NCBI RefSeq assembly: GCF_008973485.1
Contig: NZ_CP031223.1
Span: forward strand, 2,108,001 to 2,172,000
Length of the DNA: 64,000 nucleotides
From: Psychrobacillus glaciei
GTDB lineage: Bacteria > Bacillota > Bacilli > Bacillales_A > Planococcaceae
Direction: 5' to 3'
Numbering within the stretch: position 1 is the first letter of the stretch; the number at the start of each line of letters is the position of its first letter. Below the pieces are notes generated by a model, which saw only the letters and a list, made by a program, of their open reading frames with translations, was not told where the DNA came from and ran no database searches. The position numbers and the translations under genes were made by a program. This document shows positions 30,267-33,487 of the stretch, one piece after another.

Positions 30267-30731
30267 TTAAAATAAACGATTCAAATTCGCCATTTCAATT
30301 GCGGACACTGCAGCATCATATCCTTTGTTCCCTACTTTTGTACCAGCACGTTCAATCGCTTGTTCAATTGTTTCCGTAGTTACAATGCCGAACATAACTG
30401 GAACACCAGTAGATAAACCGACACTTGCAATGCCCTTAGCAGTTTCATTACATACATAATCGTAGTGTGTAGTAGAACCACGAATAACAGTACCAAGACC
30501 GATAATTGCATCATATTTTTTCGTTTCTGCCATCTTTTTTGCAATAAAAGGAACTTCAAATGCACCAGGTACCCACGCAACATCTACATTTTCCTCTGCA
30601 ACGCCATGACGTTTCAAGCCATCCAATGCACCGTCCAATAATTTACCATTAATAAATTCATTAAATCTACCAACAACTACACCAATTTTTAAATCTGTAC
30701 CTATTAAATTTGCTTCAAATACTTTTCCCAT
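30267..30731 (-). CDS. ribH: 6,7-dimethyl-8-ribityllumazine synthase
   Basis: A 154-residue lumazine synthase that condenses 5-amino-6-ribitylamino-uracil with 3,4-dihydroxy-2-butanone 4-phosphate. The motifs [37 protein letters not shown] (with the catalytic His) and the C-terminal [21 protein letters not shown] are all present, and length matches the family. Last gene of ribE-ribB-ribH, 36 bases after ribB, with AGGAGAGA upstream. Confidence 0.95.
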
Positions 30732-30767: not shown

Positions 30768-31382
30768 TCAAACTGTTTGTTCTTGTTCATTTAGATATTT
30801 CACTAATGCTTCAATCGTTACAAACTTTAAATTATGAGTCTCCGCAATAGTATGTAATTCTGGAACTCTCGCCATGGAACCATCCTCACTCATAATTTCA
30901 CAAATGACTCCGGCTAGTTGAACTCCACAAAGTTTAGCAAAATCAACGGCAGCTTCCGTGTGACCAGGACGCTCTAGCACACCATTTTCTTTTGCTACAA
31001 GTGGGAACACATGACCAGGTCGGCGGAAATCTGAGCTAACTGATTCTACATTTAATAGCTGCAACATCGTTTCGGAGCGCTCAAATGCGCTAATACCTGT
31101 TTCCGTCGTTTTATAATCGATACTGACAGTAAAGGCTGTTTGATGATTGTCCGTATTGTGTTGGACCATCGGATTCAAATCAAGACGATCCGCTAACTTT
31201 TGGGTTATAGGTGTGCAAATCAACCCACGACCATACGTTGCCATAAAGTTAATGTTTTCTGGGGTCGCATAATCTGCCAACACTAGAAAATCTCCTTCAT
31301 TTTCTCTACTTTCATCATCTACAACAATAATGATTTTTCCTTTTTTTAAATCTTCTACTGCTTCTTCAATTGTATTGAACAT
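30768..31382 (-). CDS. ribB: 3,4-dihydroxy-2-butanone-4-phosphate synthase (RibB only)
   Basis: A 204-residue enzyme that makes the four-carbon riboflavin precursor from ribulose 5-phosphate. The acidic motif [11 protein letters not shown], the [14 protein letters not shown] block and [28 protein letters not shown] are complete. In most Bacillaceae this domain is fused to GTP cyclohydrolase II (RibBA, about 400 residues); here the frame ends cleanly at the end of the RibB domain, and no RibA sequence follows. It lies 21 bases after ribE. Confidence 0.92.
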
Positions 31383-31403: not shown

Positions 31404-32042
31404 TTAGAATCCATTTTGCCTTAAAAAGTCCATTGTGATAGGTGAACTTTCTTTCTTTCGCTCCAAGTGATTTATCACGTACTTGCCAAGTAAATCATTT
31501 TCAATGTTCACTACATCATGCTCTCGTTTAATGCCGAGAAGTGTTTCACTAAATGTAAGTGGAATAAGGGAAACAGTCAGCTGCTTTGGCTTTATATCGA
31601 AAATAGTTAAACTAATGCCATCTACTGCAACCGAACCTTTTAGCATACAAAATTTACTTAGTTCTTCACTAATGTCAATATCCACGTATACGGCGTTTTC
31701 GACTTTTCTTTTTCTTAAAATGACGCCGGTTCCATCCACATGTCCGGAAACAAAGTGACCGCCAAATCGACCGTTTGCAGGCATTGCACGCTCCAAATTA
31801 ACCGCATGACCAATTTGTAAAGATTGAATGCTTGTAGACTTTACTGTTTCTGGCATAACATCCACTGTAAAGAGATTATTCGAGAAGGAAATGACTGTTA
31901 AACAGACACCATTAACCGCAATACTATCGCCTAAATGGATGTCTTCTACAATCTTTTTAGATTCCAGCGTTAACTGCATACTATTTAGTCCGCTTTTCAT
32001 CGATTTAACCTTGCCTAAGTCTTCTACAATTCCCGTGAACAT
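31404..32042 (-). CDS. ribE: riboflavin synthase alpha subunit
   Basis: A 212-residue riboflavin synthase that dismutates two 6,7-dimethyl-8-ribityllumazine molecules. The two lumazine-binding domains are visible: MFTGIVEDLGKV at the start, NGVCLTV, then GGHFVSGHVDGTG, followed by a second VDGISLTI barrel. ATG 32042 has AAGAGGTGT upstream. It is the first gene of the operon; ribD, usually first in Bacillus, is absent. Expression should be controlled by the two FMN riboswitches upstream. Confidence 0.93.
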   Translation of the reverse strand: MFTGIVEDLGKVKSMKSGLNSMQLTLESKKIVEDIHLGDSIAVNGVCLTVISFSNNLFTVDVMPETVKSTSIQSLQIGHAVNLERAMPANGRFGGHFVSGHVDGTGVILRKRKVENAVYVDIDISEELSKFCMLKGSVAVDGISLTIFDIKPKQLTVSLIPLTFSETLLGIKREHDVVNIENDLLGKYVINHLERKKESSPITMDFLRQNGF

Positions 32043-32079
32043 TAAATACACCTCTTTTCTATTTCGAAATTTTTACTCA

Positions 32080-32113
32080 AAATTAAAACCCCATAGAAAC
32101 ATCTCTAAGGGGG
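32080..32113 (-). terminator. regulated terminator of the gene-proximal FMN riboswitch
   Basis: On the minus strand CCCC...TTAGAGA, TGT, TTCTA...GGGG is followed by TTTTAATTTT. It lies after aptamer A and 38 bases before ribE, as expected for the expression platform of an FMN riboswitch. Confidence 0.75.
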
Positions 32114-32198
32114 ATTTAGGAAAGTTATGTTTTACGCGTCAACAAATAGACCTCTTGAAGTAGTATTTTTCTCCATAAGGAAATAAGCCTGCACGTAC

Positions 32199-32326
32199 AT
32201 CCTTCTCCCATCCAGACTATACTGTCGGCTTTGGAGTTGCACCAAATCCTGCCTTTTAAAAAAGGCTCACGGGCTTAGAATTGCTTCATCACCGTCGATT
32301 GGGAATTTCACCCGACCCCGAAGGAC
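32199..32326 (-). ncRNA. FMN riboswitch (RFN element), copy A, proximal to ribE
   Basis: Read on the minus strand the element runs from CTTCGGGGTCGGGTGAAATT through AATTCCCAATCGACGGTGAT, GTGAGCC, GGATTTGGTG and CCGACAGTATAGTC to GGATGGGAGAAGGA. These are the conserved RFN blocks that bind FMN. The element senses FMN and, with the terminator at 32080-32113, turns off ribE-ribB-ribH when FMN is abundant. Confidence 0.95.
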
Positions 32327-32354
32327 TACATGTATGAAATTTTGCTAGGTTTTA

Positions 32355-32391
32355 TTCAAAAATAAAACCCCATAGATATATCTCTACGGGG
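32355..32391 (-). terminator. regulated terminator of the distal FMN riboswitch
   Basis: On the minus strand CCCCGTAGA, a 6-base loop and TCTATGGGG form a perfect 9-bp stem followed by TTTTATTTTT. It is the expression platform of aptamer B and is stronger than the copy near ribE. Confidence 0.8.
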
Positions 32392-32476
32392 TGATTAGGA
32401 AAATTACAATTTACGCAACAACAAATAAACGTATGGAAGTGTATTTTTCTCCATAAGAAAATAAGCTTGCTCGTAC

Positions 32477-32603
32477 ATCCTTCTCCCATCCAGACTATAC
32501 TGTCGGCTTTGGAGTTGCACCAAATCCTGCCTTAAAAAAGGCTCACGGGCTTAGAATTGCTTCATCACCGTCGATTGGGAATTTCACCCGACCCCGAAGG
32601 ACT
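32477..32603 (-). ncRNA. FMN riboswitch (RFN element), copy B, distal
   Basis: A second complete RFN element, almost identical to copy A over the conserved blocks; the only clear difference in the aptamer is a shorter variable hairpin (CCTTTTTTAAGG against CCTTTTTTAAAAGG). It lies about 277 bases upstream of copy A and has its own terminator. The flanking linker (TTTTTCTCCATAAG...GCTTG and TTACGC) is also shared, so the whole unit was duplicated. Confidence 0.95.
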
Positions 32604-32696
32604 ATTCATCTATAAAAAAATTATAGCACTTTAAGAGAAAATTTTCATGTATAAAAATAAACTTAAATTGCTTCATTTCTTTTCTTGAAAGTGAAC

Positions 32697-32729
32697 ACAA
32701 AGAAAGACAGACTTATTTCAGCCTGTCCA
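32697..32729 (-). terminator. terminator of the methyltransferase gene
   Basis: On the minus strand GACAG-GCTGAAATAAGT-CTGTC is followed by TTTCTTTG. It is nearly the same hairpin as the rib operon terminator at 30211-30240 (GACAGGCTGAAATGAGTCTG). Confidence 0.7.
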
Positions 32730-32746
32730 TCTACTTTCTTTACATA

Positions 32747-33487
32747 TTATTTTTTTACTAGTTTAACCATATAAGACATTGCTTCATTTAAGTCAACATT
32801 CTCATGATACTCCCAAGTCTTGTAGTTCATCGCCCCACCAGGTTTAATATCGACAAGCATAAGGTCAGTATTCTCTAATAACATTTTCAAATCTTGAGGA
32901 GAATAACATCTTAAAGATTGAGTAACTTTCCCATCCTCATCAAACCAAGTATCAAGCATGCGGCAATTCATGAAATCAAAGTCATACTTTCGTAGTGTAC
33001 TTCCTGTCCTCATCTTTTGGCCTGCAACACTTGCCCAATACCAAGGAGTATAAATATCGATTAATATACATCCATCGGGTTTTAGCCAATTGCTCAATCG
33101 TTTTAATAATTTGTGTTGATCTTGATCATCACCAATGACAAATCCATCTATATAACAAATAACGTCAAAGGATTTATCAAGTTCGACCTTATAAAAGTCC
33201 CCCTCGATGATTTCAAGATCACCGATTAGCCTAAGTTCGCTTTTCAGCTTTTTCATGTAGTCAATTCGAGATGTTACTAGCTCTACAGCTGTAACATCAT
33301 ATCCTTTTTTAGCAGCTGTTATTGCAAACTCACCGCCTCCAGCACCTAACTCCAAAATGGACTGGAAAGGTCTAGAAGCAAAAGTCTCTATTTTCGTCAA
33401 TATTTCCTCATGCTCTTCGTTCGGGCCTTTAAAGCCGTCTTTATATAATTGAAATTGTTTGTCGTAAAAATTCTTTACCCATTCCAT
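32747..33487 (-). CDS. class I SAM-dependent methyltransferase
   Basis: A 246-residue methyltransferase. Motif I is ILELGAGGGEFAITAAKKG, followed by VTAVELVTSRIDYM (acidic residue at the strand end), EGDFYKV, FDVICYIDGFVIGD and LKPDGCILIDIYTPWYW. It resembles UbiE/Methyltransf_25-type enzymes of unknown substrate. ATG 33487 lies eight bases after AAGGAGTG. It sits upstream of the rib leader on the same strand but is separated from it by a terminator that copies the rib operon terminator, so the neighbourhood may have been rearranged. Confidence 0.82.
   Translation of the reverse strand: MEWVKNFYDKQFQLYKDGFKGPNEEHEEILTKIETFASRPFQSILELGAGGGEFAITAAKKGYDVTAVELVTSRIDYMKKLKSELRLIGDLEIIEGDFYKVELDKSFDVICYIDGFVIGDDQDQHKLLKRLSNWLKPDGCILIDIYTPWYWASVAGQKMRTGSTLRKYDFDFMNCRMLDTWFDEDGKVTQSLRCYSPQDLKMLLENTDLMLVDIKPGGAMNYKTWEYHENVDLNEAMSYMVKLVKK

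What the first reader, a model, noticed from the sequence alone, without database searches (positions are those of the whole stretch)
32080..32603. Two complete FMN riboswitches in tandem, each with its own terminator, before ribE
Two near-identical RFN aptamers (32199-32326, 32477-32603) lie head-to-tail about 277 bases apart, each followed on the minus strand by a terminator (32080-32113, 32355-32391). The linker is also shared, so the whole aptamer-terminator unit was duplicated. Tandem aptamers are established for glycine, TPP and some others, but two full FMN units in series are rare. Two terminators in series would give tighter or steeper FMN repression (a logical AND of anti-termination). 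The distal terminator has a perfect stem, the proximal one a weaker stem.
Basis: partly seen in the sequence, partly recalled or inferred. Interest (0 to 1): 0.75.

Follow-up and report, generated by a model that had tools for sequence, protein, structure and literature searches.

The report
Double FMN riboswitch before riboflavin genes
Two near-identical vitamin B2 (FMN) sensors sit in a row in front of riboflavin genes of a Psychrobacillus bacterium, each with its own stop signal; such doubles are already published, but some relatives carry four or five in a row and in some groups the sensors seem to be kept alike within each genome.

Summary
Rfam finds two full FMN aptamers on the minus strand (115.6 and 115.1 bits), 278 nt apart, each followed by a terminator-like hairpin, ahead of ribE-ribB-ribH in a Psychrobacillus genome. 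The aptamers match at 131 of 132 aligned positions, the linkers at about 77%. An assembly artefact is very unlikely and the array is not rare in this clade: 17 of 19 genomes of the genus sample carry two or three copies; the other two gave no ribE match. The arrangement is published: PMC9481103 (31 FMN doublets, 4 triplets) and PMC12452182 (ribE/ribB/ribH doublets and triplets). Best explanation: two FMN-OFF transcription attenuators in series, giving deeper and modestly steeper repression. Not found in print in my searches: relatives with four (two genomes) and five (one genome) FMN riboswitches in series; a hairpin plus TTATTT element, like a NusG-dependent pause, in 68 of 97 array units against 3.7 in shuffles, though not in window unit 2; and aptamers homogenised within genomes while linkers are old and diverged, clear in one clade, weak or absent in others.

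The parts
32620..32648 (-). promoter-like site: ATGAAA, 17 nt, TATAAT with TG before the -10
   Evidence: Only promoter-like hit in 31900-32900, where shuffles give 3.3 on average. In one search the stretch before aptamer 1 scores above its shuffles (z 3.4, p 0.01), that before aptamer 2 does not (z -0.2).
32474..32605 (-). FMN aptamer 1 (promoter-proximal)
   Evidence: Rfam RF00050, 115.1 bits, full length.
32423..32457 (-). pause-like element of unit 1: hairpin 32430-32457, then TTATTT 32423-32428
   Evidence: 8 pairs, 1 nt before TTATTT. Layout as described for B. subtilis NusG-dependent pauses (PMC12288461 passages). Prediction only.
32357..32392 (-). intrinsic terminator 1: 10-pair stem and T-rich tail
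32196..32329 (-). FMN aptamer 2 (ribE-proximal)
   Evidence: Rfam RF00050, 115.6 bits, full length.
32144..32180 (-). counterpart of the pause-like element in unit 2; the motif reads CTATTT (one mismatch to TTNTTT)
   Evidence: Reading of the sequence; the scan finds no hairpin plus motif in unit 2.
32081..32112 (-). intrinsic terminator 2: mismatched, weaker stem (32089-32112) and T-rich tail
   Evidence: -10.4 kcal/mol; not called by the stricter scan.
31404..32042 (-). ribE (riboflavin synthase, 212 aa)
   Evidence: ORF; its protein, used as query, matches its own place at 100%. Name recalled from the sequence.
30768..31382 (-). ribB (DHBP synthase only, 204 aa; no GTP cyclohydrolase II half)
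   Evidence: ORF; name recalled from the sequence. The only GTP cyclohydrolase II match of the genome lies elsewhere.
30267..30731 (-). ribH (lumazine synthase, 154 aa)
   Evidence: ORF; name recalled from the sequence.

Best explanation
The leader of ribE-ribB-ribH carries two FMN-OFF transcription attenuators in series behind one promoter. When FMN binds a nascent aptamer, its P1 helix is locked, the competing antiterminator cannot form, and the downstream hairpin terminates transcription. RNA polymerase must escape at both units to reach ribE, so repression multiplies (deeper shut-off, modestly sharper response). A hairpin plus TTATTT element between aptamer and terminator of unit 1 probably stalls polymerase (NusG-dependent pause) and gives FMN time to bind; in unit 2 the motif is degenerate. 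Shown by sequence: both aptamers, both terminator-like hairpins, a promoter-like site, the operon. Predicted: antiterminator and pause. Inferred: FMN binding, a single transcript, serial action and its effect on expression.
For: Both aptamers score at full length. Both units have a terminator-like hairpin. Over 24 arrays 47 of 55 units gave one at -7 kcal/mol or lower (at least one of the 47, G036 unit 1, is by position the pause-like hairpin); of the 8 missed, the five last units of clade B show an imperfect hairpin plus T-run by eye. In folds lacking the terminator's 3' arm, the 5' arm is paired at a mean of 0.6 or more in 36 of 41 units, mostly with aptamer strands: in window unit 1 with CCUUCGGGGU of P1/J1-2 (0.79), in window unit 2 (0.70) spread over two aptamer regions; in clade B with the 3' UGGAUGGG alone in 4 of 10 units, spread in the rest. 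Promoter-like score is raised before first aptamers (24 arrays: mean z 1.54, 8 of 24 at p<=0.05) and not before inner ones (31 units: mean z -0.26, 0 of 31). Hairpin plus TTATTT: 68 of 97 array units against a shuffle mean of 3.7 (max 8); 37 of 52 in a non-redundant set against 2.2. Two or more full-scoring aptamers are kept in 17 of 17 genus genomes that have a ribE match.
Against: No binding, transcription or expression data. The promoter scan finds fewer sites than shuffles (1 against 3.3), and 16 of 24 first-copy promoters are not above shuffles at p<=0.05. The pause element was not found in window unit 2, nor in TT[ACG]TTT form in the 9 first or inner units of clade B, which have a hairpin followed by TTTTTT instead. 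The terminator scan missed 8 of 55 units. The antiterminator folds had no shuffle control; pairing is under 0.6 in 5 of 41 units and often spread over several regions. Unit 2 of the window has the weaker terminator.
Confidence: 0.85

Rival explanations
1. Only one unit matters; the second is a tolerated duplicate with no added regulatory effect.
For: Array size varies from one to five in the family, and repeats can arise by unequal recombination. In the window, unit 2 has a weaker terminator and a degenerate pause motif.
Against: All 17 genus genomes with a ribE match keep at least two full-scoring aptamers. In clade B both linkers are conserved by position (first-first 83.6%, last-last 84.9%) although unlike each other within a genome (45.3%), as expected if both are selected. 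Neutral repeats would be expected to decay.
Confidence: 0.1
2. Each unit has its own promoter, so the aptamers act in parallel rather than in series.
For: The inter-unit spacers are AT-rich, and a few have partial promoter matches (for example G022 unit 2, p 0.08).
Against: 0 of 31 inner aptamers have an upstream promoter-like score at p<=0.05, mean z -0.26; in the window the second spacer scores no better than shuffles.
Confidence: 0.04
3. The duplication is an assembly or sequencing artefact.
For: Near-identical repeats can be mis-assembled, and I saw no reads.
Against: The copies differ in linker, terminator and flanking bases. Tandem arrays recur in 24 of 61 genomes, including four listed with a single contig.
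Confidence: 0.01

Closest known systems
Tandem FMN riboswitches listed by Sherlock et al. 2022 (PMC9481103; passages read)
   Same: FMN aptamers in series, placed in its Table 1 among pseudo-cooperative systems with multiple expression platforms; 31 doublets and 4 triplets.
   Different: The passages read give only counts for FMN. I find arrays of four (G035, G103) and five (G136), and describe linker elements and within-genome homogenisation.
FMN doublets and triplets on ribE, ribB, ribH in Bacillota, Morales & Merino 2025 (PMC12452182; outline and passages read)
   Same: Same genes and same arrangement (87% doublet, 13% triplet in their table).
   Different: No array above three in the passages read; its supplementary tables were not available to me.
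Bacillus subtilis ribD FMN riboswitch with NusG-dependent pause (review PMC12288461, passages read)
   Same: FMN-triggered termination; pause with hairpin and T-rich motif described for this class of site.
   Different: One unit, before ribD; here two units, before ribE. Pausing is not shown here.
Tandem TPP and other same-ligand tandem riboswitches (PMC9481103 and PMC2258182, passages read)
   Same: Riboswitches of one class in series, each with its own platform.
   Different: Different ligand.

Membership tests
FMN riboswitch (RF00050) | aptamer sequence and structure match to the family model | tested here: met
   Both copies, full length, 115.1 and 115.6 bits against a gathering score of 66.2.
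FMN riboswitch (RF00050) | position in the leader of a riboflavin biosynthesis or transport gene | tested here: met
   Upstream of ribE-ribB-ribH; the third copy of the genome precedes a ribU-like gene (gene name recalled from the sequence).
FMN riboswitch (RF00050) | binds FMN | not testable with these tools
   No experiment possible.
Tandem (pseudo-cooperative) riboswitch | two same-class aptamers, each with its own expression platform | tested here: met
   Two aptamers, two terminator-like hairpins; the second is missed by the stricter scan.
Tandem (pseudo-cooperative) riboswitch | one transcript carrying both units | tested here: inconclusive
   One promoter-like site, upstream of unit 1, but shuffles give more; score above shuffles before unit 1 only; no transcript data.
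Tandem (pseudo-cooperative) riboswitch | steeper or deeper response than a single copy | not testable with these tools
   Only an idealised model was computed.
NusG-dependent pause site (unit 1) | RNA hairpin directly upstream of a TTNTTT motif in the non-template strand | tested here: met
   Hairpin of 8 pairs, then TTATTT.
NusG-dependent pause site (unit 2) | RNA hairpin directly upstream of a TTNTTT motif in the non-template strand | tested here: not met
   Not found; the corresponding letters read CTATTT.
NusG-dependent pause site | RNA polymerase pausing that depends on NusG | not testable with these tools
   Needs in vitro transcription or pause mapping in cells.

The most novel reading that the evidence does not exclude
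In this family the FMN leader is an expandable multi-stage attenuator: two to five aptamer-pause-terminator modules in series. The aptamers are kept near-identical within a genome by gene conversion, while the linkers diverge and stay orthologous by position. Copy number grows by unequal crossing-over between aptamers, copying an inner linker and leaving the last, gene-proximal linker unique.
Probability: 0.5. Interest if true: 0.55.

Novelty: new member of a known kind. Interest (0 to 1): 0.4.

Why it matters
The window's doublet is a clean, ordinary example of a published arrangement. Its relatives form a natural copy-number series (one to five FMN riboswitches before riboflavin genes) in which the gain from each extra serial switch could be measured directly. 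They also offer a bacterial case in which repeated regulatory RNAs appear to evolve in concert within a short leader.

Tried and rejected
Assembly artefact: very unlikely, because arrays recur in 24 of 61 genomes. Internal promoters: no support. Clade B last units lacking a terminator (first suggested): withdrawn after reading the aligned linkers, which show an imperfect hairpin plus T-run. A first hairpin-plus-TTNTTT count was discarded because in short linkers it picked up the terminators; it was redone on a shorter stretch with TT[ACG]TTT (71 of 97, shuffle mean 9.4) and with TTATTT (68 of 97, 3.7). An earlier count of a looser bare motif gave 80 of 97 against 11.6 expected.

Split pathway idea: in 161 family genomes, three or more FMN matches occur in 66 of 86 genomes whose best GTP cyclohydrolase II match is of the stand-alone type and in 21 of 68 with a RibBA-type match (Fisher p 1.5e-8; 7 genomes with no such match left out, counts copied by hand; the 1e-60 dividing line is mine). 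I do not build on it: the counts are not corrected for descent, three or more matches is only a proxy for a tandem array (the match list was cut), and genus g7 goes the other way (1 of 8 against 5 of 10).

Homogenisation is not seen everywhere. In g5 (three genomes) and g14 (two) within-genome first-last aptamer identity (93.4, 95.8) is not clearly above same-position identity between genomes (first-first 94.3 and 96.6; last-last 93.3 and 98.3), though slightly above first-last between genomes (92.4, 94.1). In clade A the aptamer effect is small and the linkers lean the same way (73.0 against 71.0, 837 of 40320 pairings). Over 24 arrays pooled, both aptamers (96.0 against 82.8) and linkers (59.5 against 50.7) are more alike within genomes (0 of 20000 each), as separate duplications would also give. 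So the case rests on clade B, with three g18-like genomes agreeing.

The hairpin covariation test is mixed: covariation score, cells paired and cells changed on both sides exceed all 500 shuffles, but pairs with a change on both sides (3 against a mean of 2.0) and pair types (6 against 7.4) do not, and the structure was read from these same sequences.

Literature: searches for concerted evolution with tandem riboswitches (2 papers, neither on this by its listing) and for four or five riboswitches or gene conversion (12 of 2,059 listed) showed nothing relevant; one search listed 25 of 69 and 10 of 95. Only open-licence papers are held, so this is no proof of absence.

Full report
What is there. 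Rfam places two full-length FMN aptamers on the minus strand at 32474-32605 and 32196-32329, 115.1 and 115.6 bits. They differ at one aligned position and by a 2-nt loop gap; the linkers align along their length at about 77%. Each is followed by a hairpin and T-rich tail, the first perfect, the second mismatched. A promoter-like site lies just upstream of aptamer 1; the scan finds one in the region where shuffles give 3.3, so position rather than number is what speaks for it. Downstream lie ribE, a short ribB without the GTP cyclohydrolase II half, and ribH. Two genomes of the genus sample coincide with named Psychrobacillus contigs in contig length and ribE position (G010, G011), so the window is most likely a Psychrobacillus. 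The only GTP cyclohydrolase II match and the best RibD match of the genome lie side by side about 213 kb away. The genome has three FMN matches, the two here and one before a ribU-like gene; none lies at the ribA-ribD locus.

How common it is. Among 61 genomes (own, 18 same genus, 18 other genera of the family, 24 other families of the class), 24 carry FMN aptamers in tandem (same strand, about 200-370 nt apart): 17 of 19 in the genus (14 doublets, 3 triplets), 6 of 18 in other genera (3 doublets, 2 triplets, 1 quadruplet) and 1 of 24 outside the family. The two genus members without an array gave no ribE match. Of the 80 best ribE loci kept from genome contigs (586 relatives found), 5 have close tandem pairs: two Psychrobacillus, Lederbergia panacisoli, Bacillus sp. 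FJAT-49711 and Lysinibacillus fusiformis; one more has two matches 4.6 kb apart and is not counted (model R1 is my own, its structure an RNAalifold consensus). Thirteen family genomes, picked mostly for high match counts and so no sample, include one with five aptamers in series (G136) and one more with four (G103), both before a ribD-like gene. In G136 linkers 2 to 4 are identical, linker 1 is 85% like them, and the last is different.

How it works. Folding without the terminator's 3' arm leaves its 5' arm paired at a mean of 0.6 or more in 36 of 41 units, mostly with aptamer strands, though often spread over several regions and without a shuffle control. This fits the usual mutually exclusive arrangement of an FMN-OFF attenuator. 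Between aptamer and terminator most array units carry a hairpin followed at once by TTATTT: 68 of 97 against a shuffle mean of 3.7, 37 of 52 non-redundant units against 2.2, and 7 of 17 single units against 0.5, so it is not special to arrays. In 13 units of G035, G136 and G103 (10 distinct rows) the hairpin keeps 91.7% of pairs and its covariation score exceeds all 500 shuffles, while the number of pairs changed on both sides does not (131 of 500 reach it) and one pair fails in half the rows. A review (passages) describes NusG-dependent pauses in the B. subtilis ribD and fmnP FMN riboswitches and gives the layout as a hairpin 11-12 nt upstream of the RNA end with TTNTTT at -11 to -6. I therefore read each unit as aptamer, pause, terminator; pausing itself is untested. 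Window unit 2 has CTATTT instead and the weaker terminator. In an idealised serial model two copies cut the leak from 10% to 1% (terminators 90% efficient) and narrow the 90-10% FMN range from 81-fold to 40-fold; five copies reach 27.5-fold.

How it evolves. In clade B (G004, G005, G007, G008, G009, G014; my grouping by sequence) linkers match by position between species (first-first 83.6%, last-last 84.9%) but not between positions (within a genome 45.3%), so the array predates these species. Their first and last aptamers are nevertheless more alike within a genome (97.9%) than first-last across genomes (95.7%) or same-position across genomes (95.6, 96.0); of 720 pairings only the true one reaches the observed value, while for linkers 624 of 720 do. 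Species-specific loop changes shared by the copies are visible in the alignment. In the aptamer tree many copies group by genome (for example G007, G009, G136), others do not (G004, G005) or group by position (G010/G011 first copies; G073/G088 first copies). Three g18-like genomes agree with homogenisation (within 97.0; first-first 94.6, last-last 95.8). In clade A the effect is small (96.8 against 95.4, 7 of 40320) and its linkers lean the same way (837 of 40320); g5 and g14 show no clear excess over same-position identity. As a yardstick, in 12 genomes ribU aptamers are 91.2% identical between clades A and B, array aptamers 83.7% (first) and 83.1% (last), and ribU against own array 75.3%. 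Gene conversion between neighbouring copies is the simplest reading for clade B; repeated local duplication of aptamers is the alternative.

What is known. PMC9481103 (passages) lists 31 FMN doublets and 4 triplets and predicts such same-class tandems to be pseudo-cooperative. PMC12452182 (outline and passages) reports FMN doublets (87%) and triplets (13%) on ribE, ribB and ribH of Bacillota. The finding is therefore a further member of a published arrangement. In the searches (listings, several of them cut) and the passages read, I did not meet FMN arrays of four or five, a pause-like element in the units of an array, or concerted evolution of tandem aptamers.

Noticed in passing
L158 (G136), before a ribD-like gene: Five FMN riboswitches in series at about 202-nt spacing, each with a terminator-like hairpin by eye; linkers 2-4 identical, aptamers 94-99% identical to each other.
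   Followed up: partly
G000:C1:2353292-2354903 (L074, L075): ribA and ribD lie together, away from ribE-ribB-ribH, with no FMN aptamer match there.
   Followed up: partly
L080 and L081; G034: ribE of Lederbergia panacisoli (78%) and Bacillus sp. FJAT-49711 (76%), and of G034 in another genus of the family (78%), is closer to the window's than that of Lysinibacillus fusiformis (59%); L080 and L081 also carry FMN doublets, before ribD-like genes. This may mean horizontal transfer of the operon with its leader.
   Followed up: no
G012 and G018 (genus sample): Two genomes with a GTP cyclohydrolase II match and a riboswitch before a ribU-like gene but no ribE match: possible riboflavin auxotrophs.
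   Followed up: no
window 32459-32466 and 32181-32188: A further GCTTATTT lies 7 nt after each aptamer; in clade A 15 of 16 units have such a TTATTT stretch 6-8 nt after the aptamer. It might be a second pause motif using P1 as its hairpin.
   Followed up: no
G011:C30:401770-401905: A weak FMN match (34.3 bits, below the cut-off), about 48 kb from the ribA match of that genome; perhaps a decayed aptamer or chance.
   Followed up: no
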